Positions 10,047-41,129 of a stretch of 41,129 nucleotides of DNA are shown in pieces (the stretch's first letter is position 1; each line of letters begins with the position of its first letter). Below the pieces are notes generated by a model that did no database searches, was not told where the DNA came from, and was given only the letters and a program-made list of their open reading frames with translations. The position numbers and the translations under genes were made by a program. Source of the stretch: Lachnospiraceae bacterium (GTDB taxonomy: Bacteria > Bacillota > Clostridia > Lachnospirales > Lachnospiraceae); the NCBI GenBank assembly GCA_017482205.1, contig JAFUNK010000008.1, forward strand, positions 1 to 41,129, given 5' to 3'.

Positions 10047-10073
10047 TCCTAAGCTACTGTTAGGAGGACGCAG

Positions 10074-10794: not shown

Positions 10795-10822
10795 TAATAT
10801 TGTATAGCAATGAAACATTGTT

Positions 10823-10854
10823 AGAGAGCATTACCCCAAGGGGTGATGCTCTCT
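10823..10854 (+). terminator. hairpin after the RNHCP gene
   Basis: AGAGAGCATTACCCC and GGGGTGATGCTCTCT form a near-perfect 15-pair stem just downstream of the RNHCP stop. There is no long T-run on either side, so termination is likely but not textbook. The region lies between two convergent genes. Confidence 0.55.
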
Positions 10855-10914
10855 ATTGCCTTATGACAAATTCTATAGAATTTCCTGTTGTAGCCACCAC
10901 GAGAAACGGTTTGT

Positions 10915-11595
10915 TTAGTCTGTGGTAGCAATATTCTGCAAACGTTTGAACATTTTCTTTACCGCAGGAATCTGTAATACAACCACAGTGATAATACCCT
11001 CTAATAAAATATAACTATAATTGTAAACAATGGGATAGAGTACGGCGATGGACTGCGGGAAGTTTTCCGGCATATAGTCCATCCAGTACAGATAGCCGCC
11101 GATTGTGTGGAACAGACCTCTTACAAAGATGGATAAGAGGTAGCCTAACACAAATTTGTTTTCTTTTTTGTAGAAAAAGCCCGTAATGCCCAGTGCCGTA
11201 AAGGCAAAGAAGTAGTCACAGCAAACCTGAAAAGGGCTTAACATATAGGAGCCGCCACTCTGGAAAAACTGTAAAATACTGTAGGCAACTGCAGAAAGCA
11301 GGCCGGCTTTGATGCCATAAAAATAACCGATGATGCAGATGCAAAGCATGGAAAATGCAGTGACGGAGCCGCCGTAGGGCATTTCGAACTTGATGTAGGA
11401 AAGTACAAAACCTAAGGCAAGGCAGACACCGCATACTGCCAGCCGCTTTGCAGAGAACTTGGTATTTTTCTGTTTGCGGTCTACAATGATTGCACAAAGT
11501 ATCAGTGCAACTAATAATACAGCTACTAAAGCATAGTAACCTGCGGTTCCCAAAGCAAAGGAACCGTCTTCTTGTGAAATAATAAAGTTGGACAT
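10915..11595 (-). CDS. thiT: ECF thiamine transporter S component ThiT
   Basis: A 226-residue membrane protein of the ThiT family, the substrate-binding subunit that delivers thiamine to an energy-coupling-factor transporter. It has about six or seven hydrophobic segments. The ThiT-like core LGFVLSYIKFEMPYGGSVTAFSM, GIKAGLLSAVAYSILQ and RGLFHTIGGYLYW is recognisable. An additional N-terminal transmembrane helix makes it slightly longer than the roughly 180-200 residues usual for ThiT. GGAGG precedes the ATG. A TPP riboswitch lies about 110 bases upstream, which fits thiamine import repressed by thiamine pyrophosphate. The ATPase and T subunits (EcfA, EcfT) are not in the window. Confidence 0.93.
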   Translation of the reverse strand: MSNFIISQEDGSFALGTAGYYALVAVLLVALILCAIIVDRKQKNTKFSAKRLAVCGVCLALGFVLSYIKFEMPYGGSVTAFSMLCICIIGYFYGIKAGLLSAVAYSILQFFQSGGSYMLSPFQVCCDYFFAFTALGITGFFYKKENKFVLGYLLSIFVRGLFHTIGGYLYWMDYMPENFPQSIAVLYPIVYNYSYILLEGIITVVVLQIPAVKKMFKRLQNIATTD

Positions 11596-11641
11596 AAAAA
11601 AACCTCCTTGGTATTAGCAAAGAGGGACACAAACGATCATC

Positions 11642-11698
11642 ATAAATGCAATTGGATAGAGGGTATAATGGTTGATAGTTTTAATAAATTGCATTTAT
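11642..11698 (-). promoter_or_regulatory. probable expression-platform stem of the TPP riboswitch
   Basis: ATAAATGCAATT (11642-11653) and AATTGCATTTAT (11687-11698) form a perfect 12-pair stem between the TPP aptamer and thiT. This is the expected place for the switching structure. No U-run follows directly, so translational or alternative pairing control is possible. Confidence 0.45.
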
Positions 11699-11704
11699 AA
11701 TAAC

Positions 11705-11794
11705 GTGCTTCCTTACGCCGGTATTATCCGGGTCAAGTAGTGAGGGTTAGAGTCCGAGGACTCAATCTCAGCGATGTGCTCCCCTAGCAGGTAA
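11705..11794 (-). promoter_or_regulatory. TPP riboswitch (THI element)
   Basis: Read on the minus strand, the conserved blocks of the thiamine pyrophosphate aptamer appear in order: CTAGGGGAGC, GCTGAGATT, and GACCCGGATAATACCGGCG followed by TAAGGAAG. It sits downstream of a strong promoter and upstream of thiT, the classical arrangement for thiamine transport genes. Binding of TPP is expected to reduce thiT expression. Confidence 0.95.
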
Positions 11795-11811
11795 ATATTC
11801 AGTTCATATTC

Positions 11812-11840
11812 AATATAAGATTAGTTATTTAATTTGTCAA
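11812..11840 (-). promoter_or_regulatory. sigma-A-like promoter of thiT
   Basis: On the minus strand TTGACA (11835-11840) and TATATT (11812-11817) are 17 bases apart, with transcription starting just before the TPP riboswitch. Confidence 0.75.
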
Positions 11841-11862
11841 GTAAAAAATTGTATGTTACACT
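11834..11862 (+). promoter_or_regulatory. candidate divergent promoter of the MATE gene
   Basis: TTGTCA (11834-11839) and TACACT (11857-11862) are 17 bases apart. The -35 box overlaps that of the thiT promoter on the other strand, so polymerase binding at the two may compete. A 15-base near-palindrome CACCGGTGACCGGTG follows at 11889-11903 and could be an operator. Confidence 0.45.
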
Positions 11863-11954
11863 TATATGAGTGATGTCGTAACCGCTTACACCGGTGACCG
11901 GTGGTGCGGAATGGCAGAGAAATGTTAGAAACTATATGGTCTGGGAGTGAAATT

Positions 11955-13319
11955 GTGAAGCTGATACGAAAGTGGTTTAGGGAAAATCAAAATCACATAG
12001 CACGAACCGCAAAAATTGCGTGGCCGGCAGTGTTGGAATCCTTTTTTGTGGCATTTGTAGGCATTGTGGATTCCATGATGGTAAGCCGTCTGGGAGAATA
12101 TGCCGTGGCAGCGGTAGGTTTGACTACACAGCCCAAGTTTATCGGACTGGCGGTATTTATAGCAACCAATGTGGCGGTGTCGGCACTGGTGGCAAGAAGG
12201 CGCGGTGAAGACGACAGGGAAGGTGCCGGCAGAGTGCTTTTGACAGCCTTGGCAGTGGTCGTTGCACTGGGCATTTTAATCAGTCTGCTGTGTGTATTGT
12301 TTGCAGACCCGATTATACATTTTGCAGGTTCTGAAGCGGATACCCATGAAAGTGCAGTAGCCTATTTTAGAATTATTATGGGCGGAATGATGTTCAATAT
12401 CATTTCCCTGGCAATCAATGCAGCACAACGTGGCAGCGGTAATACTAAAATTGCACTACGAACCAATCTGACATCCAATATTGTTAATGTATGTTTTAAC
12501 TTTTTGTTGATTGAAGGTAGATTTGGCTTTCCGGCATGGGGTGTACAGGGAGCAGCTATTGCTACGGTGTTGGGAACTGTGGTTGCCTGTGCCATGAGTA
12601 TTATCTCCTTATTCAGTAAGAGCAGTTTTGTAAGTGTGAAATTTATTTTAGAAAACAAATTGCGGGCAACGAAAGAAGCCTTTAAGCAGATATTCAATCT
12701 GGCGTCCAGTGTATTTATTGAACAGATATTATTGCGTGTGGGCTTTATGTCAGTTTCCGTAATGGCAGCAAAGCTGGGAACCAGAGCTTTTGCAGCACAT
12801 CAGGTGGGTATGAATATTATGGGGCTTTCCTTCTCCTTCGGAGACGGTATGCAAGTAGCAGCGGTAACTCTGATTGGGCAGAGCCTTGGACAGAAAAATG
12901 CAGAGCTTGCAAAAAAATACGGCACCATTTGTCAGCGGATGGGAAATCTGATTTCTGTGGTATTATCTGTTCTATATCTGCTCTTGGGAGAATGGTTTTT
13001 TGGTATGTATTTTGATGAGGCCGAAACCATTGCCATAGGTGTACAGATTATGCAGGTAATGGTATTGATTGTATTGATGCAGGTGTCTCAGGTGATTTAT
13101 ATGGGCTGTCTGCGTGGTGCAGGGGATGTAAGGTTTACGACAGTAGCATCTACCATAAGTGTTACTTTTATAAGACCAATAGCTTCTTTTATATTTGCCT
13201 ACGGGCTTAATTTCGGCGTAATCGGTATCTGGTGGGGCGTTGTATGCGACCAGATTTGCAGATTGATTTTGACAAACTGGCGCTTCCGTTCCGGCAAGTG
13301 GACAGAAATAGAAATATAA
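11955..13319 (+). CDS. MATE family efflux transporter
   Basis: A multidrug and toxic compound extrusion protein of about 454 residues with roughly twelve transmembrane segments in two halves, likely exporting cationic or xenobiotic compounds against Na+ or H+. The N-terminal half shows IAWPAVLESFFVAFVGIVDSMMVSRLGEYAVAAVG and QPKFIGLAVF, and the second half AAHQVGMNIMGLSFSFGDGMQ, both typical of the family. The frame is open from GTG 11901. I prefer GTG 11955, which has GGGAG seven bases upstream; ATG 11922 is possible but has no clear ribosome binding site. The substrate cannot be deduced. The HAD-CPBP gene follows after 34 bases, probably on the same transcript. Confidence 0.9.
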   Translation: MKLIRKWFRENQNHIARTAKIAWPAVLESFFVAFVGIVDSMMVSRLGEYAVAAVGLTTQPKFIGLAVFIATNVAVSALVARRRGEDDREGAGRVLLTALAVVVALGILISLLCVLFADPIIHFAGSEADTHESAVAYFRIIMGGMMFNIISLAINAAQRGSGNTKIALRTNLTSNIVNVCFNFLLIEGRFGFPAWGVQGAAIATVLGTVVACAMSIISLFSKSSFVSVKFILENKLRATKEAFKQIFNLASSVFIEQILLRVGFMSVSVMAAKLGTRAFAAHQVGMNIMGLSFSFGDGMQVAAVTLIGQSLGQKNAELAKKYGTICQRMGNLISVVLSVLYLLLGEWFFGMYFDEAETIAIGVQIMQVMVLIVLMQVSQVIYMGCLRGAGDVRFTTVASTISVTFIRPIASFIFAYGLNFGVIGIWWGVVCDQICRLILTNWRFRSGKWTEIEI

Positions 13320-13353
13320 TTATGATTTAACAAATAACAGAAAGGAAAGAAAA

Positions 13354-14919
13354 ATGTTTGATTATGTGTTATTTGACCTGGATGGTACACTGACAGACCC
13401 CAAGGAGGGCATTACCAAAAGTGTACAGTATGCACTTAAAACTTTCGGTATTGAAGAAGAGGATACCGACAATCTGGTGCCTTTTATCGGACCGCCTTTA
13501 AAGGACAGCTTTATGGAGTTTTATGAGTTTGATGAAGAAAAGGCAGAGCAGGCAATTGAAAAGTACAGGGAACGTTTCCAGGATACCGGTATTTTTGAGA
13601 ACCGTATTTATGATGGCATTCCCGAACTGATTCGTAAGCTGAAGGGAAACCGCAAAAAGCTGGCAGTGGCATCCAGCAAGCCCACTGTTTTTGTAGAGCG
13701 TATATTAGAGCATTTTGATATCCGCAGATTTTTTGATGTGGTAGTAGGTAGTGAATTGGATGGCACCAGAACGGACAAGGCTGAGGTGGTAGAAGAAGCA
13801 CTCAGACAGCTTTACGGAGAAAATGAAGAAGAGTGGGAGCAGAAAAAACGTACTACGGTTATGGTAGGTGACAGAAAGTTTGATGTTGCCGGAGCCAAAG
13901 CGCAGGGACTTATCAGTGTAGCGGTTGCATACGGTTACGGTAAAATGGATGAATTACGGATTGCAAAGCCGGATTATACAGTAAAAAGTGTGGAAGAGTT
14001 GGAAAAACTTTTATTAAAGGATACCAAAAAAGAGGTAAAAGAAGCTCCCATGACTAAAATCTGGTATGTGCTTTTCCCGGCATTGGTTTTCTTCTTTGTC
14101 AGGGAAATGGGAGCTTATATCGGACAGTTTATAATATTGAATCTGGTGGGAACACTGCCCGATGCTTTGGTAGAAAAAATTATTATCTGGGATGAAACAG
14201 GTACTATGATAGCGGGCTTAACCGGTAACGGCTCTGCCATTATAGCGGCAATAGCATTTATCATCACAGGAATTGTGTGTATAAAGTTCTTTGCCAAAGA
14301 CGATATTTCCAAGGCAGAAAAAGCGGTAAAAAAACGTCCTGTTTTGGCAAAGGCACCGGCGGCTTATGTGTGTATGTTAATTGCAGTTCCGGCACTGGTT
14401 TTGGGATTGAATTATCTTTTTGAACTTTTAGGTATTACCAATATGTCCGAAGCCTACAAACAGACCAGCGAAATGCAGTATGCGGCAGCACTTCCTCTGG
14501 CTCTGATAGTAAACGGTTTGCTGGCACCCATAGTGGAAGAAATCATTTTCAGAGGGGTTGTATTTAACAGATTAAAGGAAAACAACAAATTGGTAACATC
14601 TGTTATTGTATCTGCACTGGTGTTTGGCGTATATCACCAGAACATTGTACAGGGGTCGTATGCGTTCCTTATGGGTTGTATCATTGCCGTATTGTATGAA
14701 TGGTTCGGACATTTCTATGTGCCGGTGGTAGTGCATGTTGTAGGTAATGTGCTGGTATACCTGTTGAGTGTAACCGGACTGGCAGTGGCAATCGGTATTA
14801 ACTGGTGGATGTGCGTTGGTCTGCTTTTGGTCGGTATCGGTATGATATTGTGTTGTAGCAGTATGTATCAAAAGGTTTCTAAAGAATTTGTCCCGGTAGA
14901 AGAACATAGCGTAGAATAA
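13354..14919 (+). CDS. HAD phosphatase fused to a CPBP intramembrane protease
   Basis: A 521-residue two-part protein. Residues 1-215 are a PGP/Gph-like haloacid dehalogenase phosphatase: FDLDGTLTD with nucleophile D8 and D10, VASSKPT (motif II), and MVGDRKFDV (motif IV, about 170). After a charged linker, residues 230-500 form about eight membrane segments with CPBP (Abi, Rce1-like) motifs: PIVEEIIFRGVVF (EExxxR, about 394-400), FGVYHQN (about 427) and VVVHVVGN. Both active sites look intact. The single frame runs through without a stop, so this is a true fusion. A soluble phosphatase is thus tethered to the membrane next to a protease-like domain. No substrate can be named. AGAAAGGAAAG precedes the ATG. 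Confidence 0.88.
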   Translation: MFDYVLFDLDGTLTDPKEGITKSVQYALKTFGIEEEDTDNLVPFIGPPLKDSFMEFYEFDEEKAEQAIEKYRERFQDTGIFENRIYDGIPELIRKLKGNRKKLAVASSKPTVFVERILEHFDIRRFFDVVVGSELDGTRTDKAEVVEEALRQLYGENEEEWEQKKRTTVMVGDRKFDVAGAKAQGLISVAVAYGYGKMDELRIAKPDYTVKSVEELEKLLLKDTKKEVKEAPMTKIWYVLFPALVFFFVREMGAYIGQFIILNLVGTLPDALVEKIIIWDETGTMIAGLTGNGSAIIAAIAFIITGIVCIKFFAKDDISKAEKAVKKRPVLAKAPAAYVCMLIAVPALVLGLNYLFELLGITNMSEAYKQTSEMQYAAALPLALIVNGLLAPIVEEIIFRGVVFNRLKENNKLVTSVIVSALVFGVYHQNIVQGSYAFLMGCIIAVLYEWFGHFYVPVVVHVVGNVLVYLLSVTGLAVAIGINWWMCVGLLLVGIGMILCCSSMYQKVSKEFVPVEEHSVE

Positions 14920-14956
14920 GAAAAAATGTAAGGATTTGTAATTAAGAAAATAAAAG

Positions 14957-15005
14957 AACACCCGTAATTGAAACGTATAGCGTATCTTTACGGGTGTTTG
15001 TTTTG
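14957..15005. terminator. bidirectional rho-independent terminator
   Basis: ACACCCGTAA (14958-14967) pairs with TTACGGGTGT (14988-14997), followed by TTTGTTTTG on the plus strand and by a T-rich run on the minus strand. It separates the convergent HAD-CPBP gene and asnA and can serve both. Confidence 0.88.
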
Positions 15006-15033
15006 CTATAAATTAAAGGTTTTGCAGTTGGCT

Positions 15034-16044
15034 TTATAATAATTCAACGCCTCTTCTGGCTGCCTCTGCCATGGTGTCATCCGGCCAAAGGGAACAGTGT
15101 ACTTCACCGATATGAGCCTTTCGTAAGAAGAACATACAAATACGGGACTGTCCGATACCGCCACCGATGGTATAAGGTAACTCACCCTTGATAACGGACT
15201 TCTGGAAAGGCAACTCTGCACGTTCGGGGCAACCGGCTTTTTTAAGCTGTTTTTCAAGAGCTTCCTTGTCTACACGGATACCCATGGAGGATAATTCCAA
15301 TGCGATATCCAGTACCGGATAGTATACAATAATATCTGCATTTAATGCCCAGTCGTCATAGTCCGGTGCACGTCCGTCGTGGCGTTCGCCGGATTCAAGG
15401 GTGTCACCAATCTGCATAATGCAGACAGCTCCTTTTGCCTTTGCGATATAATATTCGCGTTCCTTGGGAGTATAGTCGGGGAACATATCTTCAAGCTCCT
15501 GTGAAGTAACGAAGAAAATATCGTGGGGCAGGATTTCTTCAATGTAATCGTAATGGATGGACATATACTTTTCGGTCTTGCGCAGTACCTTGTATACATT
15601 GCGTACTACATCTTTTAAAGTGTCAAGAGTACGGTCTTCCTTTTCGATAATCTTTTCCCAGTCCCACTGGTCCACATAGATAGAATGTATATTATCAACA
15701 TTTTCATCACGTCTGATGGCAATCATATCGGTATAGAGACCTTCGCCTACATGAAAGCCGTATTTTTTGAGTGCATAGCGTTTCCACTTAGCCAGAGAGT
15801 GTACGATTTCAGCATCTCGGCCATTTTGCTCCAGAATATCAAAAGTAACAGGACGTTCTACACCGTTTAAATTGTCGTTAAGACCGGATTCGGGAGATAC
15901 AAATAAAGGTGCAGACACACGCAGAAGGTGTAATCTTTCTGCAAGTAAGGTTTGGAAAAAGTCCTTAACCGTTTTGATAGCAATCTGGGTATCATAGAGA
16001 TTCAGTTCTGAACGGTACCCTTCAGGTATTCTTATTTCGCTCAT
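15034..16044 (-). CDS. asnA: aspartate--ammonia ligase
   Basis: A 336-residue AsnA, which makes asparagine from aspartate, ammonia and ATP. It is a class II aminoacyl-tRNA synthetase-like fold and the length matches the family. Recognisable segments are TQIAIKTVKDFFQ, LLRVSAPLFVSPESGLNDNLNG, AEIVHSLAKWKRYAL, DTLKDVVRNVYKVL, EREYIAKAKGAVCIMQIG-type sequence and the C-terminal GGGIGQSRICMFFLRK. The ATG at 16044 is preceded by GTGAG at moderate spacing. On the minus strand a possible promoter is TTGCAA, 18 bases, TAAATA around 16090-16120; I saw no T-box-like leader. It stands alone between a bidirectional terminator and the divergent radical SAM gene. Confidence 0.96.
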   Translation of the reverse strand: MSEIRIPEGYRSELNLYDTQIAIKTVKDFFQTLLAERLHLLRVSAPLFVSPESGLNDNLNGVERPVTFDILEQNGRDAEIVHSLAKWKRYALKKYGFHVGEGLYTDMIAIRRDENVDNIHSIYVDQWDWEKIIEKEDRTLDTLKDVVRNVYKVLRKTEKYMSIHYDYIEEILPHDIFFVTSQELEDMFPDYTPKEREYYIAKAKGAVCIMQIGDTLESGERHDGRAPDYDDWALNADIIVYYPVLDIALELSSMGIRVDKEALEKQLKKAGCPERAELPFQKSVIKGELPYTIGGGIGQSRICMFFLRKAHIGEVHCSLWPDDTMAEAARRGVELL

Positions 16045-28186: not shown

Positions 28187-28649
28187 TTTTGCTTGGCAAG
28201 ACTATTTTTTCAGCTGCAACAAAATATATCCAGAAAGGCAGAAACTTGTGTTAATATGAGCTAAAGGAAGGAATTAGTCAGGTCGTGAAGAATTATTTAG
28301 ACAAATTGAGCGGGCAGAGGGATAGATGAAAGTAGAAATAAAACCTGATGGAGTTTGGTATCATGGTTCCAATATGATTTTTTCAGAATTAAGAACAAAC
28401 AGCACTATTACGCAGTGGAAGGAGCTTGCGGAGGCATTCTCTCATCAGCCAAGTAGTTTGCGAATTATAACTTTAAATTGACGCCCTTTTGGAATTGTGT
28501 GCTTGATATATATACTTTGATAAATGGGGATTTATCGCTTTGGCAAACTGGAAGTTAAATAGTGTCACACCGGAAGTTGAGTATGAGCCATTCACAGGAA
28601 AAAACGGAAGATAGTTTTCGAATGCTGCAGGCCGGAGTAAACTGCATTA
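28187..28649. other. gene-poor stretch with gene remnants
   Basis: This part of the gap between the MarR gene and the XRE/S24-like gene has no intact gene. On the plus strand, a 15-codon tail SGREELFRQIERAEG ends at about 28325 and looks like the last piece of a lost protein. It is followed by the short frame at 28326-28481. Between 28482 and 28649 I see nothing recognisable. Confidence 0.5.
28326..28481 (+). pseudogene. N-terminal remnant of a YHGS-type (ADP-ribosyltransferase-like) protein
   Basis: A 51-codon frame after AGAGGG encodes VWYHGSNMIFSELR and TITQWKELAEAFSHQPSSL. The YHGS start followed by STITQ and an alpha-helical AEAFSH segment resembles small Clostridial proteins with an ADP-ribosyltransferase-like N-terminus, which normally continue for another 60-100 residues. 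Here a stop follows at once. Its isolation in a gene-poor region supports decay. The family assignment is from memory and tentative. Confidence 0.4.
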
Positions 28650-28882
28650 TGGGCATATACAACATATTTTTCAGGGTGATGCCCAAAACCAAGGAAATTT
28701 TACAGCTATTTTAGTAGTTTTGGGCATAGAGAGCTAAAAAAACGGCGTCAGTGCCCACAGTTTGTCTTTTTTGTGGGCATCAGACAGGTAAATTGTTCTG
28801 GAATGCCCAAAAAGACCTTTTTTTAAGGATAAAATACAATTTTTTGGGCATAGAGAGCAGAAAAAATCCATTTATGCCCATT
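28650..28882. repeat. cluster of GGGCA/TGCCC inverted repeats
   Basis: In about 230 bases the words GGGCA and TGCCC alternate at 28651, 28680, 28721, 28752, 28775, 28804, 28845 and 28875, making several successive hairpins. Examples are TGCCCAAAAC with GTTTTGGGCA, and GTGCCCAC with GTGGGCAT. The string TTTTGGGCATAGAGAGC occurs twice (near 28718 and 28843). Stems are separated by AT-rich loops. No open frame fits. It could be a degenerate repeat element or a structured RNA. Confidence 0.6.
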
Positions 28883-28988
28883 TTGAATAAAAAGTGCTGC
28901 TTTCCCACATGCACCACAATTGGCTAAGGTCAAGAAATGCTGTACCCGTATTTCAAGTATCGTCTAAAAACCTTCTGCATATTTTTGA

Positions 28989-30443: not shown

Positions 30444-30767
30444 ATGGTATTCAACACAGGTGCGGCACTATTGGATGCAATTGTGCTGGCGGTAGTGTCC
30501 AAGGAGCCGGAAGGTACATATGGGTACAAAATTACCCAGGATGTGCGGCAGGTTATTGATTTGTCGGAATCGACCCTGTATCCGGTACTGCGAAGACTGC
30601 AAAAGGATGAGTGTATGGTGGTGTATGACAGAGAATACGCAGGACGGAACAGACGGTATTACCGGATTACGGAAAAAGGGATGGCACAGCTTACCATGTA
30701 TATAAATGAATGGAGACAGTATTCCGGAAAGATTTCATGGATACTGGAGGGGAGGAGCCAAGGATGA
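30444..30767 (+). CDS. PadR family transcriptional regulator
   Basis: A 107-residue PadR-type winged helix: LLDAIVLAVVSKEPEGTYGYKITQ, then LSESTLYPVLRRLQKDECMVVYDRE and the wing NRRYYRITEKG, ending in a short dimerisation helix. In Firmicutes, small PadR proteins commonly sit in front of DUF1700 and DUF4097 genes, as here, and control an envelope-stress-like response. An ACGGAGG ribosome binding site precedes the ATG. Its stop overlaps the start of the next gene (30764), so the two are coupled. Confidence 0.94.
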   Translation: MVFNTGAALLDAIVLAVVSKEPEGTYGYKITQDVRQVIDLSESTLYPVLRRLQKDECMVVYDREYAGRNRRYYRITEKGMAQLTMYINEWRQYSGKISWILEGRSQG

Positions 30768-31552
30768 ATAAAGAGGAATTTTTGAGAGAACTGGCACGTT
30801 TGCTTCAAAACATTCCGGATAGCGAAAGAAGAGAAGCATTGCAATATTATGAAGACTATTTTAATGATGCGGGGCCGGAAAATGAACAAAAGGTGCTGGA
30901 AGAATTGGGAACACCCCGTAAGGTAGCCGATACCATTAAAGATGGTCTGCTGGCAAATATGGATTGCCGGGAAACTATCGGAGGACAGAACACAACTGCA
31001 TACCAGAGTACAGTGGGCGGACAGGGTGCAACCGCATACCAGAGTACAGTGGGCGGACAGGGTGCAACCGCATACCAGAGTACAGTGGGCGGACAGGGTG
31101 CAACCGCATACCAGAGTACAGTCGGAGGACAGAACACAGCCACATACCAGACTCCTCCGGTACAGAAAGAAGAGGGGATACCTGCATGGGCGATAGTGCT
31201 GATTGTCATAGGATGCATTTTCTGTTCCCCGGTTATTATCGCTCTGGCGGCGGTTTTATTTGGACTGATTGTAGCAGTGATGGCGGTAATGTTTGCGTTG
31301 GTGATAGGATTTGGGGTGTCCTGTGCGGCGACTTTATTTGCCGGACTTGTGGTAACCATAATGGGACTTGTACATATTATTGTATCCCCTTTTTCAGGAA
31401 TGATAGTGACGGGAGCTGGGTTGATTTGTTTTGCAGTCGGTATTCTGTTTATGATGATTACCGTATTTCTTTGCGGTTGTGCAATACCGGCAATGTGCAG
31501 AGGAATTGCATGGATATGCGGAAAAATTTTTAAAAGAAAACAAAAGATATAA
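30764..31552 (+). CDS. DUF1700 (HAAS-type) membrane protein with a repeat linker
   Basis: A 262-residue protein. Residues 1-65 are the DUF1700/HAAS helical domain (MNKEEFLRELARLLQNIPDSER, EALQYYEDYFNDAG, VLEELGTPRKVADTI), which interacts with PadR-type systems. Residues 73-132 are a low-complexity linker built from 12-residue repeats of the type GGQGATAYQSTV, encoded by almost identical 36-bp units. The rest is about three to four membrane segments and a basic tail. The start ATG 30764 overlaps the PadR stop and has GGAGGGGAGG upstream. The linker length is likely to vary between strains. Confidence 0.88.
   Translation: MNKEEFLRELARLLQNIPDSERREALQYYEDYFNDAGPENEQKVLEELGTPRKVADTIKDGLLANMDCRETIGGQNTTAYQSTVGGQGATAYQSTVGGQGATAYQSTVGGQGATAYQSTVGGQNTATYQTPPVQKEEGIPAWAIVLIVIGCIFCSPVIIALAAVLFGLIVAVMAVMFALVIGFGVSCAATLFAGLVVTIMGLVHIIVSPFSGMIVTGAGLICFAVGILFMMITVFLCGCAIPAMCRGIAWICGKIFKRKQKI
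30980..31159 (+). repeat. 36-bp in-frame tandem repeat, five units
   Basis: Units begin at 30980, 31016, 31052, 31088 and 31124. Units 2 to 4 are virtually identical (GGCGGACAGGGTGCAACCGC start); the outer units have GGAGGACAGAACACA. Because 36 is a multiple of three, gain or loss of units keeps the DUF1700 frame. Not a CRISPR array: there are no spacers. Confidence 0.95.
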
Positions 31553-34120: not shown

Positions 34121-35524
34121 ATGCAGAGAATTAGGTTAACGTATAAGAGTTCGGAGGTTACTCCCAGTGTATATTTATTGCTGTATTTTCGGATGACAGG
34201 AATCTATGTATATGAGCGTTTTTTTGACGCTGATCGGAGTAAGTCTGAGAAAATGCGGAGTTTGTTGTCACGCAATGAAGATATTAACATTTCAGAGCCA
34301 AGAGATGGTTTTGATTTGGATATTTATTGTATAGCAGATGCGAACGATTATAAAATGTATTTGGAAGAGTATGGACAAGAAAAGGAAGGTTTTTTTTCAA
34401 AGCGGATAGTCCTTTGTTCAGAAGAATTAGAGCTGTTGCCATTTGAACAGACTGCAAATATTCGTATGTTGAAATATAGGGGAGAAAGTGAACAATTACT
34501 AATTGATATTGTGGATGCATTATATGATATGATGATTGTTCCGGGATATACGAAAGACGAATTGCATATTTGTAGGGAGATATATATTAGTATTGAATTG
34601 TGGAAGATATCTTTATTGGGAAAATATTTCTATATTGCAGAATCCATGGAGCAGTATAAAAATATGGTTCAGAAGTATAGAAATGGAGTTGATTTGATTT
34701 TTTCACGATTAAGAAAGACTGGGTGTAATTGGGGAGATAAAGAGTATATTCATCTTCAATATGCAGCTTTGAACTTGGCGTATGAAGGGAATCAATACTG
34801 TATCAGAAATAGTAAAACGTTGATATACAAATCTGCTGGAATAGCCGATGTATGTGAACAATTATTAAATAAGGGTATTGAGCCAACTGAACTTTCAGAT
34901 AGCTTTAACATGTTGTTGGCACAAATATATGATGATTTGTTAAAAGATGCTAATAAAGCATATCCATATTATTTATTAGCCTGTAAGGATTATAATGCAT
35001 ATGCGTTTTATAGGAAAGGTATTTACTGGCAAGAATATGCAAAAGATTATAATAAGGCAATAAAGTATTATTCACAAAGTGTTCATATTTATCCAGAATA
35101 TTATAGAGCATGGTATCGTTTAGGGAACTGTTTCATGCTGACAAATAAATGCAGAGAAGCGTTAGAAATTTTTAGACATGTGAATTGTATACTTAAACCT
35201 CGGTTAGAAACAAAAAAAATTCGCCCTATGGAAATTGAATATTTGTTTAAAGCACAGAATAGATGTGCATATATTTGCAATAAGGTATTAAATAATAAGC
35301 AGCAATCAATTAGGGAGAATATGGAAGCAATAAAGGCATGGGAGGCTATTGACAATAGTTCGTTTTTTGAATTTTTTAAGGAGGAAGAAGAGACAACGAG
35401 AAAAAGAGTAAAGAAAGAATTAAATATTTTAAAAATATATATGGAAATATATAAACTTGCTGACAAAATAGGGGACAGTCAGTTAAAAAAAGAGTACTCA
35501 AATAAAATAGAAGATATACTATAA
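34121..35524 (+). CDS. alpha/beta plus TPR protein, candidate RADAR accessory
   Basis: A 467-residue protein I cannot assign to a named family. Residues 1-140 alternate hydrophobic strands and helices (VYLLLYFRMTGIYVYERFF, DLDIYCIADANDYKMYL, KRIVLCSEELELLP, LLIDIVDALYDMM), which looks like a Rossmann- or TIR-like fold, though no catalytic glutamate can be fixed. The middle is helical. Residues 290-360 contain TPR-like repeats (YAFYRKGIYWQEY, DYNKAIKYYSQSVHIYP, YRAWYRLGNCFM, CREALEIF). The C-terminus is charged and helical. ATG 34121 has AGGGG seven bases upstream; the frame is open back to a TTG at 34100. The rdrA-like gene starts 11 bases after it, so it is co-expressed and may sense infection or scaffold the complex. 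Confidence 0.8.
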   Translation: MQRIRLTYKSSEVTPSVYLLLYFRMTGIYVYERFFDADRSKSEKMRSLLSRNEDINISEPRDGFDLDIYCIADANDYKMYLEEYGQEKEGFFSKRIVLCSEELELLPFEQTANIRMLKYRGESEQLLIDIVDALYDMMIVPGYTKDELHICREIYISIELWKISLLGKYFYIAESMEQYKNMVQKYRNGVDLIFSRLRKTGCNWGDKEYIHLQYAALNLAYEGNQYCIRNSKTLIYKSAGIADVCEQLLNKGIEPTELSDSFNMLLAQIYDDLLKDANKAYPYYLLACKDYNAYAFYRKGIYWQEYAKDYNKAIKYYSQSVHIYPEYYRAWYRLGNCFMLTNKCREALEIFRHVNCILKPRLETKKIRPMEIEYLFKAQNRCAYICNKVLNNKQQSIRENMEAIKAWEAIDNSSFFEFFKEEEETTRKRVKKELNILKIYMEIYKLADKIGDSQLKKEYSNKIEDIL

Positions 35525-35535
35525 GGAGAAAACAG

Positions 35536-37998
35536 ATGGGCAAAAATATTAAGGAATTCAGGGTAAATTGTATTAATAGGATTAAGTATGAAAAGGTAGA
35601 TGAGTTTGAAACGTCACTATTTGCAGACGTGTATAGTAGAGCAGTAGAACTGACTGCATCTATTGTTGATGCCAATATGGCGGAAGAAAATCAAATTTCT
35701 GTGGAAACGGAATTTTGCACGGAAGAAAGATTTAATAATATAATATCCTTTTGGGGAGAGCGTGGCATGGGAAAATCTTCTGCCATGCTTTCTTTTGCTC
35801 TTTTTTTAAAAAAATATGAACCGAACGGATGTGCATATCAATTTAAATTTAGAGAAGGAGAAAAATTAAAATTTCATGTGCTTCCCAGAATAGATGCGGC
35901 CATGTTGGTAAAGGGAGAAAATTTGCTGGATATTATATTGGCAAAAATGTGGAGTACCTTTGATGAAAAAGAAAAAAGGAGTGTTAATACTGAGCAGGAT
36001 AGCCAGTTTATTGAAACAAAAAAACGTTTTGGAGATGTAAAGAAATCATATGAGGCCTACCAGAATACTATTCTTGGAAAGAAAAGGAAGGATATGACTT
36101 CCGTTAGGCAATTGAGTGAGTTGTCTAAATGTTTGAACTTGAGAGAAGATTTTAAGAAATTAGTAGTTTCCTATCTGGAATGGATGGAAAACAATGTCTC
36201 AGAAAATAAATTTTTGGTGTTGACAATTGACGATTTGGATGTGGTAGTTGACGATGTGAATAATATTCTGGAACAAATACGATTATTTTTAATGATACCT
36301 AAAGTAATCGTATTGGTAACAGCTGATTTTGAACGACTTTATTTGGATTGTAACAGAGCTTTTTCAAGTAAATTGATTTGTAAGGATAATATTCAAGACA
36401 ATGAAAAGAAACAGGTGAGAAGTTATACTGAAAAATATTTGTCCAAAATATTTCCAAGTAATATGCGAGTATATATGCCAAGAATTAATGTGATGGGAGG
36501 TATAGAATATAAAGTAAAGCTGCCTAGGGCAGAAAAAATATTGAGAATGGCGGATGGACAAGAGTATGATGAAGATGATTTGAATGAGAAAAAAATATTA
36601 TTTACAATGCTTGCAAAGTATACCAATATTATGATGTATCCTTTTGATGATCATATTCATATACTGCAGAAAAATTCTTTAAGAACTATTGCTAATGCAC
36701 TGTATGAGTTAAGTAATATGCATGATATAGAGGAGCAGCAGCGTTCTAAAGTTGCTTGCCGTTGGATACAAAATGCGTTAATTGACTATGCGAGGGCAAT
36801 TACGGATGAAGAAGAATATAATTGTATACAAGGAATATTAAATGAAGATAGAAAAGGTATTAATATAGCGATTGAGGAGGTGCTTTTTTATTTATATGAT
36901 AAAGCTGAAAAAGCGGACGAATATCAAGTCACATATGGTGAATTACTAAAACTTTTATCACTGTTGAGAAAAAATGGGCATAGAAAATTTGTGCAATTTA
37001 TTCTTGTATTATATTCTACATATATTGCAGAAATGTTTGGAGAAATTAGTGAAAAGGAAGAATTTGCGGCTGAAAATATGAAACATATATTTAGTCCGTT
37101 TATAGAGGGAAAAACGTTTTTAGACAAGGATTCGGATGGACCGATTGAAGTGGATAAAATACCAGTAAGTGCGTTGCAAATGGAATTTATTGAAGCACCA
37201 GGGCAGTATAGTGCTATTGAATGTATAGAGAAGAATATAGGGTTAATTCATAAGGTCTTTAAAATTGCAATGTTATGCGAGTGGGACTTGTGGAAAAAAA
37301 GTAAAGAGGATGAGGAGTATATTAAATATGTTGCAGAGAAAGTAGTTACATTTGAAGCAAAGGAATTCCCGGGGAATTTAGAAGAATCACAGGGTATTAG
37401 TGAAGAGAAAGGAGAAACCAGTAAAATTTGTTTATTGTTGAAAGAAGAGTTACAGATAGATTATGCTAAGTCAACTGTGGGAAATACATTACAAAATTAT
37501 CTTTCGTATGAAGAAAAGTTAAAGGGATTTATATATAATATATATATTGCTTTATGCGAGTTATTAAAAGAAAAGGAAGACAAAAATGTAGAAGCAAAAA
37601 TTAAGAAGATAGTTATGCTGCCGATTTTTGAAATAAAGAAATATAGAAAGTGGAATCAGGGACTGCAGAAAGGAACGGTAACGATATTGCCGTTACAAAG
37701 TGCAGAGGTAATGTGTTATATGGCTGAAAAGGTAAGCAAAATAGAGCCAATTGCGAGTTTAGGAATATTGGAAAGAATATTGCAGAGGCAGGAAAAACAG
37801 GTGGAAAAAATAATTGCTGAACTTGAAAAGGTCGAGAACTATTATAGTATTGATTTGGGAACAAATGCAAATTATTCGAAACAAATAAAAACACTTAGGG
37901 ATATAGTGGATCCATATGCAATTGAAAGTAATATTGTAAAGCGACAAGAAAGTACTAGGTTATTAATGCCAAGAATTGATTCAGGTACAAGTGTATAA
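35536..37998 (+). CDS. rdrA: RADAR system ATPase RdrA
   Basis: An 820-residue P-loop ATPase. Walker A is FWGERGMGKSS (72-82), Walker B is LVLTIDDLD (227-235), and a sensor-like IVLVTADFERL follows at 258-268, giving a STAND/KAP-like AAA+ core in the first 350 residues. The remainder is long and helical with many charged residues and no other known domain. Size, the N-terminal ATPase position and the adjacent deaminase gene match RdrA, which in studied systems forms ring-shaped heptamers that bind the RdrB shell and are needed for phage defence. It has AAGGAG upstream, starts 11 bases after the TPR gene and ends 20 bases before rdrB. AT-rich codon use unlike the housekeeping genes suggests transfer. 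Confidence 0.87.
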   Translation: MGKNIKEFRVNCINRIKYEKVDEFETSLFADVYSRAVELTASIVDANMAEENQISVETEFCTEERFNNIISFWGERGMGKSSAMLSFALFLKKYEPNGCAYQFKFREGEKLKFHVLPRIDAAMLVKGENLLDIILAKMWSTFDEKEKRSVNTEQDSQFIETKKRFGDVKKSYEAYQNTILGKKRKDMTSVRQLSELSKCLNLREDFKKLVVSYLEWMENNVSENKFLVLTIDDLDVVVDDVNNILEQIRLFLMIPKVIVLVTADFERLYLDCNRAFSSKLICKDNIQDNEKKQVRSYTEKYLSKIFPSNMRVYMPRINVMGGIEYKVKLPRAEKILRMADGQEYDEDDLNEKKILFTMLAKYTNIMMYPFDDHIHILQKNSLRTIANALYELSNMHDIEEQQRSKVACRWIQNALIDYARAITDEEEYNCIQGILNEDRKGINIAIEEVLFYLYDKAEKADEYQVTYGELLKLLSLLRKNGHRKFVQFILVLYSTYIAEMFGEISEKEEFAAENMKHIFSPFIEGKTFLDKDSDGPIEVDKIPVSALQMEFIEAPGQYSAIECIEKNIGLIHKVFKIAMLCEWDLWKKSKEDEEYIKYVAEKVVTFEAKEFPGNLEESQGISEEKGETSKICLLLKEELQIDYAKSTVGNTLQNYLSYEEKLKGFIYNIYIALCELLKEKEDKNVEAKIKKIVMLPIFEIKKYRKWNQGLQKGTVTILPLQSAEVMCYMAEKVSKIEPIASLGILERILQRQEKQVEKIIAELEKVENYYSIDLGTNANYSKQIKTLRDIVDPYAIESNIVKRQESTRLLMPRIDSGTSV

Positions 37999-38018
37999 AT
38001 ATAGGGGAGAAAGCAGTT

Positions 38019-40850
38019 ATGGATAATCTGCGTGCTGTAATAAAAAATTTATTTTGTTATGTATCGCCACAGGCAATTATAGAGAATAAAATTCAATATG
38101 ATGGTATTGATGAAACGCTTTTTTTGCAGTTAGGTAGTGGATATATAACCCAGTATTCTAATGATGAATTATTAAATATGTATAACTACTTACGGAATGA
38201 GTTTCAGTGGCAGAAAAGAAAACTTAAGGGTGAAATACCAACGCATATGAAAGGTGAAGATGGTCTTTTAAATGTATTTGAAGCGTTAATTGCTTTTGAC
38301 TATGGTGTTCTTATTGAAGAAAATGGAATGCCGTTGTGTCAATATGTACAATTATTGCGTTGGAGAGAGATGATAACGGTGTTAGAAGAAGATTTGTTTA
38401 TTACTTCTTTTCTGGCATATAATGATAATTTAACAGGAAAGAGGAGAAAAAATTTTTTCTGGAAGCCGGTTATTGGTCATAATAATCGAGCGTTAAATTG
38501 TTTGGTGTCTAAAGGCGTAGCAGAAAATCATTTTCATTTGAAAGGGTCAGCCCCACAGTTTCATCTGTCATGGATTAGTCTTATGAATCAAGTAGATAAT
38601 ATGAAGTTTGCAGAGAGACTTGAACAATATGAGAATAATCGTTTGCAAAAGAATTTGAGTATGAATGCAAATTACCCTTCTAGTAAATTAACGCATATGT
38701 GGCAACAGGCAGTGCTGATTAGATTATTTCTTTTTTCGGTATTGAAGGAGGATTATTTGGAATGGGGAGATATCTATGTTTCTGCAAAGTTATTATTAGA
38801 CTTGATAAAGGATGAAGGGATACAAGCAAAAATAAAGGAAATAGTTACGAAAAAGAAATTTGCAGAAAAACAACTGGTGAATTTTGACGAATATGCTGAA
38901 GCATGTGGGAGTCAGAGCATAATAGTTAAAAAGTGGTATTCAGTATATATGACGGAAAGACTATTGCATGATAGGGAGATGTTAGAAGATTATCTAGGTA
39001 TTGTGCAGGAAAATATTTATCGGTTTCAGGAAAAGTATGGTAAGAGAGATCTTGATTACATGATATGCGAGGTGTGGTTGGCTTATAATGGAAAGAAAGA
39101 TATAAATGGCCCACTTAGTGGAGAGCGTTGGTTTTTGTATACGATATTTTCGGGCATTTATAGTAATCAGAAGGAGATAAAACCATATATAAATTGGTTT
39201 TATTTATATTTGGTAATCAAGGCAAATATTCGACGAGAATTGGTACAAACAAATGTCAATGTGGGATTTGATAATTTTTATCAGTATCAAAATCGTAAGG
39301 ATATTTTTATTGAAGATAGTATTTATGAGAAGATTTATGTCAGGATGGCGGTTAGAGATACCATATATAATCAGCACATTAGGAGTCTGGAAGCTAGAAT
39401 AACTCCGAAGAAAACAGTGCAAGAAAATCTCAATATGATTCGCAAGTATGATAAATGGATTACGGAGTCATTGGATGATGAAGAGGATAAACGTAGATTA
39501 CAGGAACAATATTTTTATGTAATACATTTTATTAAAGAGTCTGAGAGAGTTCAGCCTAATTTACCATTTTTAGAGGAATATCGAAGTTATAAAATAAGGG
39601 AAAACGTGAAAGAGCAAGCACTGGCAATTGCATCATTACGAGAGAGAGGGTGTCCGGAGGCAGCTAGGATAAAAGGTATTGATGCATGTTCGGCAGAGCT
39701 TTGGTGCAGAGCGGAAGTGTTTGCACAAGCGTTTCGTTATTTGAAGAACCATTGGGTATATGAGGCAAAAGAACAATGTGATGATGTTAGGTGTAAAAAT
39801 CTTTTTGCAACGTATCATGTAGGAGAAGACTTTTTGGATATTTTAGATGGGTTACGGGCAATTGATGAAGCTATTGTTTTTTTGAACTTACGTTGTGGAG
39901 ACCGGTTGGGGCATGCATTAGCTTTAGGCGTGGATATTGATGATTGGTATGCAAGTAAGACACATCGAATTTTGATTAATAAGATGGCATACATAGATAA
40001 CTTGGTTTGGTTGTATGCAAAGTTAAGAAGATATAATATTGAAGGGTGTGATGACGTAAAATCTTATATAGAAAAGCGGTTCAGAGAATATTTTGCAGAA
40101 ATTTATGAAAATAATATTGTACAAGAAAAAATTCAAGATATCATAAAACAAGCAAAAGCGTATTTTGATCAGTGTGGTATTAAACATAGTTATAATCATA
40201 ACAATGTATACTTTGGAATCAATGAATACTATGATGCATGGAAACTTAGAGGAGATAACCCTGAGTTATATAGAGATGGCTTTTTTAAGATTAAAGGTGA
40301 GTTAATGGACGAGTGGGATGAATATGCAGTAAATAAAGAATATCCGCAAAATTATCAAATTCGCTATAATCCTGAAACGGCATTATTATATTATATGTAT
40401 CATTTTGATCCGAATGTAAAAATTATAGGTGACCAAATGATAGAAGTTAAGATTAGGCCTAATTTGGTAGATGCAATTAAAAAGGTCAGAAATGTAATGC
40501 AACGTGAAATATGCAGTGCAGGGATTGGAATAGAAACAAATCCTTCTTCTAATTATTTAATTGGTACTTTTAGGCGTTATGATCAACATCCTATTACTAA
40601 ATGGTATAATTGTGGTTTGACATTAGATGCAGAAGCATTGCAGCAGTGCCCTCAGATGCAGGTATCTATCAATACTGATGATCAAGGTGTTTTTTCTACA
40701 TACATTGAAAATGAATATGCATATTTGGCGTTAGCGCTAGAGAAATGTAAGGATGAAAAAGGTGCTCCTATATATAACAGGACAATGATTTTGCAATGGT
40801 TAGATCATATTAGGGAGATGGGAATTGATCAAAGTTTTGATTCTAGATAA
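38019..40850 (+). CDS. rdrB: RADAR system adenosine deaminase RdrB
   Basis: A 943-residue protein, about three times longer than normal adenosine deaminases but matching RdrB. The deaminase motifs are spread along it with large insertions: metal-binding HxH in ENHFHLKGSAP (H171, H173), YHVGEDF (H600, E603, equivalent to HAGE with the catalytic glutamate), GDRLGHALALG (H632), IETNPSSN (839-845) and SINTDDQGVFS (D887, D888). All zinc ligands and catalytic residues are present. In known RADAR, RdrB forms a dodecameric shell and with RdrA deaminates adenosine in RNA or, by later work, ATP/dATP to ITP/dITP, stopping phage growth. AGGGGAG precedes the ATG. It is the last gene of the operon. Confidence 0.93.
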   Translation: MDNLRAVIKNLFCYVSPQAIIENKIQYDGIDETLFLQLGSGYITQYSNDELLNMYNYLRNEFQWQKRKLKGEIPTHMKGEDGLLNVFEALIAFDYGVLIEENGMPLCQYVQLLRWREMITVLEEDLFITSFLAYNDNLTGKRRKNFFWKPVIGHNNRALNCLVSKGVAENHFHLKGSAPQFHLSWISLMNQVDNMKFAERLEQYENNRLQKNLSMNANYPSSKLTHMWQQAVLIRLFLFSVLKEDYLEWGDIYVSAKLLLDLIKDEGIQAKIKEIVTKKKFAEKQLVNFDEYAEACGSQSIIVKKWYSVYMTERLLHDREMLEDYLGIVQENIYRFQEKYGKRDLDYMICEVWLAYNGKKDINGPLSGERWFLYTIFSGIYSNQKEIKPYINWFYLYLVIKANIRRELVQTNVNVGFDNFYQYQNRKDIFIEDSIYEKIYVRMAVRDTIYNQHIRSLEARITPKKTVQENLNMIRKYDKWITESLDDEEDKRRLQEQYFYVIHFIKESERVQPNLPFLEEYRSYKIRENVKEQALAIASLRERGCPEAARIKGIDACSAELWCRAEVFAQAFRYLKNHWVYEAKEQCDDVRCKNLFATYHVGEDFLDILDGLRAIDEAIVFLNLRCGDRLGHALALGVDIDDWYASKTHRILINKMAYIDNLVWLYAKLRRYNIEGCDDVKSYIEKRFREYFAEIYENNIVQEKIQDIIKQAKAYFDQCGIKHSYNHNNVYFGINEYYDAWKLRGDNPELYRDGFFKIKGELMDEWDEYAVNKEYPQNYQIRYNPETALLYYMYHFDPNVKIIGDQMIEVKIRPNLVDAIKKVRNVMQREICSAGIGIETNPSSNYLIGTFRRYDQHPITKWYNCGLTLDAEALQQCPQMQVSINTDDQGVFSTYIENEYAYLALALEKCKDEKGAPIYNRTMILQWLDHIREMGIDQSFDSR

Positions 40851-41009
40851 TTTATTGTAGGAATAGAAGATTTTTCTGATATATAAGGAGTCTGGATATA
40901 GTTAATATGATCGTGTAAAGAGCGTATTTAGAACAAAACGTGAAGATTAAAAAAGATAAAATTTCAACTTACAATAAAATTTGCAGTCTGTAGGTTTGTC
41001 AAACATTTG
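40851..41009. other. short junction between rdrB and a transposase fragment
   Basis: AT-rich, with no gene and no clear terminator hairpin. The right end of the downstream insertion element should lie in the last 50 bases, since the transposase stop is at 41010-41012, but I cannot fix its terminal repeat or target duplication. Confidence 0.5.
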
Positions 41010-41129
41010 TTACAGTGATGCGAGATAATTCCTTAGAATTTGGTTTGGTGTCTTCCATCCCAGTGGACGCATAGGGAAGTTGTTGTAATCCCTGCGGTTG
41101 TAAAGTTTAAGCTGGTTACTGAAATCTTC
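40980..41129 (-). mobile_element. insertion sequence, 3' end only
   Basis: Inferred from the transposase tail at 41010-41129; the left boundary is approximate. Family IS3 or IS481 by the tail sequence; not resolvable from 40 codons. Confidence 0.5.
41010..41129 (-). CDS. transposase, C-terminal part (DDE/integrase-core type), cut by the window
   Basis: Thirty-nine codons plus stop on the minus strand, continuing beyond the window. The translation includes QLKLYNRRDYNNFPM and RPLGWKTPNQIL, the standard end of integrase-core transposases of the IS3/IS481 type (the YN..RPM..LGWKTPxQIL tail). The catalytic DDE residues would be upstream, outside the window, so I cannot say if the element is intact. 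It is evidence that a mobile element borders the RADAR operon. Confidence 0.8.
   Translation of the reverse strand, partial: EDFSNQLKLYNRRDYNNFPMRPLGWKTPNQILRNYLASL

What the first reader, a model, noticed from the sequence alone, without database searches (positions are those of the whole stretch)
34121..40850. RADAR anti-phage operon in a Lachnospiraceae-like genome
Seen: an 820-residue P-loop ATPase (GERGMGKSS, LVLTIDDLD) directly followed by a 943-residue protein carrying HFHLKGS, YHVGED, RLGH and INTDDQ in adenosine-deaminase order. Known: this size and gene order define RADAR (RdrA-RdrB), reported mostly from Proteobacteria, streptococci and other scattered taxa. Inference: a complete, catalytically intact RADAR system in a gut-type Clostridia chromosome.
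Basis: partly seen in the sequence, partly recalled or inferred. Interest (0 to 1): 0.9.

Follow-up and report, generated by a model that had tools for sequence, protein, structure and literature searches.

The report
Three-gene RADAR with a TPR partner
A gut bacterium carries a far-diverged version of the RADAR phage-defence system with an extra repeat protein in front, and some relatives sit beside fused sensor-killer genes, which hints that RADAR's altered nucleotide may act as an alarm signal.

Summary
In detail: an 820-aa AAA+ ATPase and a 943-aa deaminase-like protein with the stated motifs. They are a divergent RdrA-RdrB pair: a 50-row profile of the ATPase hits only solved RdrA chains in the PDB (E 1e-37); the deaminase profile hits RdrB at 168.6 bits, other deaminases at 25.1 or less. 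It marks one RdrB clade (35 of 36 decidable loci), lay only in RADAR operons (7 of 7 family genomes holding it, 299 searched) and co-varies with RdrA more than with RdrB; I read it as a dedicated sensor or adaptor. An IS cuts the locus 138 bp after rdrB. In relatives, three loci of the same clade and one distant RADAR have a KomB-KomC-like (HAM1-SIR2) fusion beside them, kin of Kongming's dITP-activated NADase; the one fusion found in 392 genomes searched for it abuts rdrB. RADAR's (d)ITP may thus serve as a signal. No such gene was found in this draft genome. New variant of a known kind; function inferred.

The parts
34121..35524 (+). TPR protein (467 aa), first gene of the operon; N-terminal ~130 aa of unassigned fold, C-terminal TPR repeats
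   Evidence: ATG preceded by AGGGG
35536..37998 (+). RdrA-like AAA+ ATPase (820 aa)
   Evidence: PADLOC RdrA 5.2e-18; NCBIfam RdrA 1.3e-23, below cut-off; profile A4 hits only PDB RdrA chains 8fnu, 8hr7, 8fnt (8FNT and 8FNU named RdrA in PMC9994260)
35755..35781 (+). Walker A GERGMGKSS (residues 74-82, K80)
36214..36240 (+). Walker B LVLTIDDLD (residues 227-235)
38019..40850 (+). RdrB-like (d)ATP deaminase (943 aa)
   Evidence: PADLOC RdrB 1e-34; NCBIfam RdrB 3.7e-55, below cut-off; PDB RdrB 8fnv/8fnw 1.7e-22, profile 2.2e-48; 8FNV and 8FNW named RdrB and RdrA-RdrB in PMC9994260
38529..38549 (+). HFHLKGS, zinc ligands H171 and H173 (E. coli RdrB H152/H154)
   Evidence: ligand numbering from PMC9994260 passages
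39813..39830 (+). YHVGED, H600 and catalytic E603 (E. coli H498/E501)
39903..39914 (+). RLGH, H632 (E. coli H530)
40668..40685 (+). INTDDQ, D887/D888 of the deaminase core
40989..41129 (-). Terminus of an IS element with an integrase-type transposase (type by eye); cuts off whatever lay 3' of rdrB; not a part of the defence system
   Evidence: 130 bp identical at G000:C28:1-130 and G000:C14:5134-5263; all three copies share sequence from 40989 on, and the window and C28 differ before it; transposase ORF in the C14 copy

Best explanation
This is a three-gene variant of RADAR. Shown here: the two large proteins are a divergent RdrA-RdrB pair with intact active-site residues, in one operon behind a TPR protein that is confined to one clade of RADAR and tracks RdrA in evolution. 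Inferred from the solved systems: RdrA forms an AAA+ ring that docks on a shell of RdrB, and on phage infection RdrB turns ATP and dATP into ITP and dITP, which stops phage growth and the cell. Inferred and less certain: the TPR protein is the sensor or gate of RdrA, binding a phage product or an RdrA ring and releasing or triggering the complex. In several relatives a further gene beside the operon (HAM1-SIR2 fusion, Csx27-like or SLATT-like membrane protein, CBASS-type 2TM protein, Thoeris-like SIR2 protein) probably acts as an additional effector, and in the HAM1-SIR2 case it probably reads the inosine nucleotide made by RdrB.
For: RdrA: PADLOC 5.2e-18, profile hits only RdrA chains in the PDB, 1.1e-37 over columns 71-812. 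RdrB: PADLOC 1e-34, PDB RdrB 168.6 bits against at most 25.1 bits for other deaminases; all five metal/catalytic residues present. Pairing: of 84 tree rows checked, the nearest upstream gene is rdrA-like in 75 (73 by the strict rule, plus L091 and L092 with longer overlaps); in 4 it is an rdrA split into pieces, in 1 (L022) a 1010-aa ORF with a weak RdrA match, in 4 the contig ends within 1.4 kb; 7 rows were not in that count. TPR gene: in 35 of 91 RdrB rows, all inside one clade of 40 rows (35 with, 1 without, 4 cut by a contig edge); 7 of 299 family genomes hold it and all 7 in RADAR operons (six of those seven loci are in the profile, so the informative part is that none lies elsewhere); partial rank correlation of distances TPR-RdrA given RdrB 0.64 (0 of 2000 permutations as high), TPR-RdrB given RdrA 0.14 (82 of 2000) in 35 loci. 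In the nearest relative TPR and RdrA share 44.5% and 45.6% identity, RdrB 68.3%: two fast partners and one slow enzyme.
Against: NCBIfam equivalog cut-offs are missed. The sensor role of the TPR protein rests on co-variation and operon position; adjacent genes can also co-vary because they are inherited or exchanged as one block, and TPR proteins serve many roles. No phage trigger is known. Many TPR-RADAR loci have no effector-like neighbour. Csx27- and SLATT-associated RADAR already exist in print (PMC7699616 passage), so part of the accessory pattern is not new.
Confidence: 0.6

Rival explanations
1. Ordinary two-gene RADAR; the TPR protein is a chaperone or assembly factor, or is merely co-transcribed and plays no part in sensing.
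For: Published RADAR is described as two genes and protects E. coli in that form (PMC9994260 passages). Sister clades of the same RdrB family lack the TPR gene: 32 rows without it, 15 undecided, in the 82-row family.
Against: Kept in 35 of 36 decidable loci of its clade although its sequence has diverged to a median 19.3% identity; co-varies with RdrA beyond what RdrB explains.
Confidence: 0.27
2. The TPR protein is itself an effector that is activated by the (d)ITP made by RdrB or by RdrA.
For: Several relatives carry a second, effector-like gene beside the same operon, so extra effectors are a habit of these systems.
Against: No catalytic domain found: 36 members matched TPR-type and other helical-repeat families and, beyond these, single weak hits; comparison of the N-terminal part with 30 TIR domains gave 0.25% probability. 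It is also present together with the HAM1-SIR2, Csx27-like and Thoeris-like genes, so it is not an alternative to them.
Confidence: 0.08
3. Deaminase pair with a non-defence role (nucleotide salvage or RNA modification).
For: No direct defence assay here; the neighbours in the window look by eye like ordinary chromosomal genes, and nine of them scanned against PADLOC gave no defence system, only weak matches of regulator-type proteins.
Against: Family match is to RADAR and not to salvage deaminases; patchy distribution, 12 of 299 family genomes, one of them by a weak partial match; some relatives stand beside CBASS-, Thoeris- and Kongming-like genes.
Confidence: 0.05

Closest known systems
RADAR (RdrA-RdrB), E. 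coli / Citrobacter / Streptococcus suis type
   Same: AAA+ ATPase followed by ~900-aa deaminase, same motifs, profile matches to the solved RdrA and RdrB
   Different: Extra TPR gene in front; far from the RdrB rows that pass the NCBIfam cut-off (L144, L149) in the tree; itself below the equivalog cut-offs
Csx27- and SLATT-associated RADAR (named in PMC7699616, passage)
   Same: Same RdrB family: Aureibacter RADAR with an annotated SLATT gene falls in the 82-row family; TPR-RADAR relatives carry Csx27-like genes
   Different: No ORF of 80 aa or more after rdrB in the 279 bp left, and no Csx27 or SLATT match among nine genes upstream; a TPR gene is not mentioned in the passages read
Kongming (KomA-KomB-KomC)
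   Same: A deaminase makes an inosine nucleotide; in relatives of the window's operon a fused HAM1-SIR2 protein matches KomC (5.6e-45) and KomB (3.4e-22) of the solved structures
   Different: RdrB in place of KomA; KomB and KomC fused into one chain; no copy found in the window's own draft genome
Cad1 (CARF-deaminase of type III CRISPR)
   Same: Converts ATP to ITP (PMC11645235 title and passages)
   Different: No CARF domain match; the CARF-ADA model touches only the deaminase end of RdrB at E 0.004

Membership tests
RADAR | RdrA: AAA+ ATPase homologous to solved RdrA | tested here: met
   Profile of 50 rows hits only three distinct PDB sequences at E 0.01: 8fnu 1.1e-37, 8hr7 3.3e-26, 8fnt 6.1e-26. 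8FNT and 8FNU are E. coli and S. suis RdrA by PMC9994260; 8hr7 is an entry that also holds the RdrB chain. A single-sequence search found none
RADAR | RdrB: large deaminase nearer to RdrB than to housekeeping adenosine deaminase | tested here: met
   8fnv/8fnw 168.6 bits, next deaminase 25.1 bits
RADAR | Histidine tetrad and catalytic glutamate of RdrB | tested here: met
   H171, H173, H600, H632, E603 invariant in 10 rows and aligned to the E. coli residues given in PMC9994260 (the stretch with H171/H173 aligns in a segment of only 2.6 bits)
RADAR | rdrA directly followed by rdrB, conserved in relatives | tested here: met
   counts
RADAR | NCBIfam equivalog cut-offs (600 and 800 bits) | tested here: not met
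   83.4 and 187.8 bits. Of 8 other RdrB proteins scanned, 2 pass (970, 901) and 6 do not (156-205); the one RdrA scanned passes (781). The RdrB model marks a narrow clade and not RADAR as a whole
RADAR | Heptamer-dodecamer assembly; ATP to ITP conversion; phage protection | not testable with these tools
   needs the bench
Csx27- or SLATT-associated RADAR | Csx27 or SLATT gene beside rdrAB | tested here: inconclusive
   No match among nine upstream genes and no ORF of 80 aa after rdrB, but the contig ends 279 bp after rdrB in an IS
Kongming | KomA, KomB (HAM1-like) and KomC (SIR2) | tested here: not met
   No window ORF matches Vibrio KomA (E 1e-2), KomB or KomC (E 1e-5). No match of the HAM1-SIR2 profile in the own genome, which is 73.7% complete; that profile also missed the two HAM1 proteins that Pfam finds there, an RdgB-like one and a HAM1-HD-type fusion
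Type III CRISPR Cad1 | CARF domain fused to deaminase | tested here: not met
   No Pfam CARF hit; PADLOC CARF-ADA only at residues 830-904, E 0.0041

The most novel reading that the evidence does not exclude
RADAR in this lineage is a second-messenger system: the TPR protein senses the phage and gates RdrA, RdrB makes ITP/dITP as an alarm nucleotide, and interchangeable effector genes read it, the clearest being a KomB-KomC-like fusion (a HAM1 receptor whose catalytic Asp is replaced, joined to a SIR2 NADase with its conserved residues kept). RADAR and Kongming would then be two inputs to one inosine-nucleotide alarm.
Probability: 0.35. Interest if true: 0.85.

Novelty: new variant of a known kind. 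Interest (0 to 1): 0.6.

Why it matters
[quoted passage not shown] A clade-wide TPR partner that tracks RdrA offers a concrete sensor candidate. The KomB-KomC-like fusion beside RADAR in two separate RdrB lineages makes a second question directly testable: is (d)ITP a poison, or a signal read by a dedicated NADase? If it is a signal, two defence systems now treated apart would share one messenger.

Tried and rejected
TIR reading of the TPR protein's N-terminus: some members look TIR-like by eye (FISY near the start), but the tally of 36 members shows no TIR match in Pfam, profile comparison with 30 TIR domains gave 0.25% and a PDB search with one N-terminus gave nothing below E 0.14; dropped.

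Structure prediction of RdrA and the TPR protein: queue full, then switched off, the RdrA job interrupted; no fold search was run.

Phage and virus context: no RdrB match at E 1e-5 in 50,697 phage records; two matches among IMG/VR contigs. I looked for mobile genes near the operon only by reading the ORF lists.

Attempt to extend past the contig end: the IS at the edge is repeated. C28 runs into the same IS end from the same side as the window, with a different flank; C14 carries an IS copy and, by eye, valS; whether C14 continues the window cannot be told. One translation of the edge was in a wrong frame.

HAM1 genes of the own genome considered as a KomB: one RdgB-like, one HAM1 fused to what looks like an HD-type domain, with a CDSGL motif; rejected.

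Chance adjacency of HAM1-SIR2 and RADAR: 1 of 392 order genomes holds a full-length match at E 1e-45 and it lies 19 bp after rdrB. In the class draw 3 of 391 genomes matched at E 1e-40 with the SIR2 half only, with no match to RADAR, KomA or KomB in the stretches fetched. 0 of 398 phylum genomes other than the own one holds a convincing RdrB (seven hits of 18-21 bits are short partial matches). In plasmids 297 records matched the fusion, 99 of them over 80% or more of it; the 20 listed are annotated as separate SIR2 and pyrophosphatase genes, and the other 277 were not looked at.

KomA search in the four fusion-bearing genomes was empty, but the tool warns that it had no positive control there; the same protein did find KomA in five prophage-like loci.

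Rows dropped before counts: L040 and L100 (short RdrB pieces), L033, L116-L120, L126 and L127, and seven loci that were fetched twice (L021, L023, L025-L029) before the tree. In one search seven of the 91 rows (L115, L144-L149) were not in the script's ORF labels and were left out.
Full report
OBSERVATION. The three genes run on one strand with gaps of 11 and 20 bp and Shine-Dalgarno-like sequences AGGGG, AAGGAG and AGGGGAG. Upstream is a 317-aa gene on the other strand; nine genes upstream gave no defence system in PADLOC, only weak matches of regulator-type proteins. Downstream, from 40989, is the end of an IS; 130 bp of it occur in identical form on two other contigs of the same draft genome.

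WHAT THE TWO LARGE PROTEINS ARE. PADLOC gives RdrA 5.2e-18 and RdrB 1e-34. NCBIfam's RdrA and RdrB equivalogs match at 1.3e-23 and 3.7e-55 but at 83 and 188 bits against cut-offs of 600 and 800. As calibration, of eight other RdrB proteins two (Aliivibrio, Salmonella) pass with 970 and 901 bits, and six (Aureibacter, Rhizobium, L115, L032, Clostridium ljungdahlii, L041) score 156-205: the RdrB equivalog covers one narrow clade. A profile of 50 RdrA rows finds exactly three PDB sequences at E 0.01, the best over columns 71-812; 8FNT and 8FNU are E. coli and S. suis RdrA (PMC9994260 key resources passage), and 8hr7 is an entry that also holds the RdrB chain. A profile of ten RdrB rows finds the solved RdrB at 168.6 bits and other deaminases at 25.1 bits or less. 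35 of 50 RdrA members match PADLOC RdrA model PDLC02216 on their own, 19 match PDLC02217. Published RADAR systems themselves share only 22-25% (RdrA ATPase domain) and 24-28% (RdrB) identity (PMC9994260 passages), so this divergence fits RADAR.

RELATIVES. RdrB matches occur in 12 of 299 genomes of the window's family, one of them (G010) a weak partial match. A pattern scan of GTDB contigs gave 187 relatives, of which the best 80 were kept. The RdrB tree of 91 rows (quick method, SH-aLRT support, several long branches flagged) puts the window next to an uncultured Lachnospiraceae bacterium (L034, support 99) and then L035 (100). The larger family of 82 rows includes Lachnospiraceae, Clostridium, Fusobacteriaceae and many Bacteroidota. 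rdrA-like gene before rdrB: counts are given above.

THE TPR GENE. It stands upstream of rdrA in 35 of the 91 rows; 41 lack it and 15 cannot be judged because the contig ends too close. All 35 fall in one clade of 40 rows (35 with, 4 cut, 1 without: L085, whose rdrA is split into two ORFs). That fits one gain and near-constant retention, although the fork that unites the 40 rows has support 89 and is drawn open. In 299 family genomes the TPR profile found 7 genomes, all in RADAR operons; six of these seven loci are themselves in the profile, so the point is only that no copy lies elsewhere at E 1e-12, and at most five candidates of each genome were scored. Distances between TPR proteins follow those between RdrA proteins after RdrB is accounted for (partial rho 0.64, 0 of 2000 permutations), but follow RdrB only weakly after RdrA is accounted for (0.14, 82 of 2000). 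Median identities in the 35 loci are 19.3% (TPR), 22.4% (RdrA) and 39.5% (RdrB). My reading is that TPR and RdrA form the fast-changing recognition side and RdrB the conserved enzyme. This is inference; block inheritance of neighbouring genes is not excluded. On print: the four papers listed hold the word tetratricopeptide zero times, and PMC9994260 holds neither it nor TPR; a wider literature, including supplements and subscription papers, was not searched, so I claim only that I did not find this gene described.

ACCESSORY GENES IN RELATIVES. Within 150 bp of the operon, among the 40 rows of the TPR clade: Csx27-like membrane proteins at seven loci (L030, L046, L048, L059, L068, L083, L090; PADLOC Csx27 E from 2.3e-9 to 1e-3, the latter weak); a group of small proteins that cluster by BLAST (L055, L069, L072, L073, L074, L077, L080 among the eight pieces printed of nine), with DUF4231/SLATT-type similarity below Pfam's cut-off for L069 and L072 and none for L055, and no PADLOC match for L069, L072, L074 and L077; a SLATT/DUF4231 gene above Pfam's cut-offs at L085, the row without TPR; a CBASS-type 2TM protein (L079, 4.9e-30); Thoeris-like SIR2-STALD proteins with a TIR end (L103, L064); a SIR2-nSTAND protein (L076). 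Csx27 and SLATT partners are known for RADAR. Other rows have no neighbour of 150 aa or more within that distance, for example L036, L042, L043, L051, L056, L065 and L089. L034, the sister of the window, has an AAA-ATPase_like gene of a kind that also lies beside L035 and L044.

HAM1-SIR2 FUSIONS. L038, L039 and L041 carry a protein with Ham1p_like (84-121 bits, cut-off 22.5) and SIR2_2 (91-95 bits, cut-off 24.5) domains. In L038 and L039 it lies directly before the TPR gene (gaps 59 and -8). In L041 it lies between a complete TPR-rdrA-rdrB operon and a second TPR-rdrA that runs off the contig, so the rdrB of that second operon was not seen; the second TPR, second RdrA and the fusion are all nearest to L038, so these three are one lineage. 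A search of 392 genomes of the order for the fusion alone found one (G495), and it lies 19 bp after the rdrB of a distant RADAR without a TPR match (L115: rdrA 12172-15489, rdrB 9467-12157, fusion 7981-9447, minus strand), in another part of the RdrB tree. So there are two RdrB lineages and four single-chain fusions confirmed; three of the four were found through RADAR, so only the fourth is an unselected case. The L041 fusion matches KomC and KomB of the solved Kongming complex (5.6e-45 and 3.4e-22) and the pyrophosphatase-SIR2 gene pair of a Vibrio plasmid next to a gene annotated adenosine deaminase. At the position where the archaeal pyrophosphatases read VED or IED (1b78, 1v7r), KomB, chain 9v0g_A and the L041 fusion read VEH; L038 and L115 also read VEHT, L039 reads TDIT. 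That this Asp is catalytic in the active enzymes is recalled, not from a call. The SIR2 stretches IYTTN and HGD are invariant in the four. That is what a receptor-plus-NADase would look like. Kongming's dITP signalling is taken from passages of PMC12774641 and PMC12948488; the original paper was not held. No KomA was found in the four genomes (no positive control). Papers that might treat both systems were looked for; no passage that I read pairs RADAR with a HAM1-SIR2 gene.

WHAT THIS MEANS FOR THE WINDOW. The window's operon belongs to the TPR clade. No fusion was found in its own genome, which is 73.7% complete and breaks right after rdrB. Whether an accessory gene was ever there cannot be told. 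Best reading: a three-gene RADAR that deaminates (d)ATP on infection, gated through RdrA by the TPR protein. The RADAR assignment itself I hold at about 0.93, the TPR role at about 0.5.

LIMITS. No structure model, no bench result, a tree by the quick method, ORF calls by a simple finder with the first start codon, and accessory calls by profile match or BLAST cluster.

Noticed in passing
L038:1804-3189, L039:1601-3298, L041:6762-8243, L115:7984-9447 (-): HAM1-SIR2 (KomB-KomC-like) fusion genes next to RADAR in two separate RdrB lineages; the HAM1 acidic position is replaced, the SIR2 residues kept.
   Followed up: yes
L116-L120 (IMG/VR contigs): Adjacent komA-, komB- and komC-like genes on five virus-collection contigs, of two kinds.
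   Followed up: no
L022 and L055 (G029), L024 and L069 (G176): Two family genomes hold two RADAR-like loci each, one with the TPR gene and one distant type without it.
   Followed up: partly
L086 (=L027):4076-6084: A RADAR of the wider family stands beside a CBASS-type cyclase and a gene whose start looks by eye like a nucleotide-binding TIR-type protein.
   Followed up: no
window 30710-31552: 280-aa protein with several tandem copies of about 12 residues (TVGGQGATAYQS) before its hydrophobic segments.
   Followed up: no
window 28640-28900: Intergenic stretch with several copies of a GGGCAT/ATGCCC-containing unit.
   Followed up: no
G000:C6 (L187:652-1908, -): Fusion of a HAM1 domain (CDSGL present) with what looks by eye like an HD-type phosphohydrolase, beside a helicase end; unlike KomB.
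   Followed up: partly
L139, L140, L141: KomC-like SIR2 genes of about 260-300 aa without a KomA, KomB or RADAR match in the stretches fetched.
   Followed up: no
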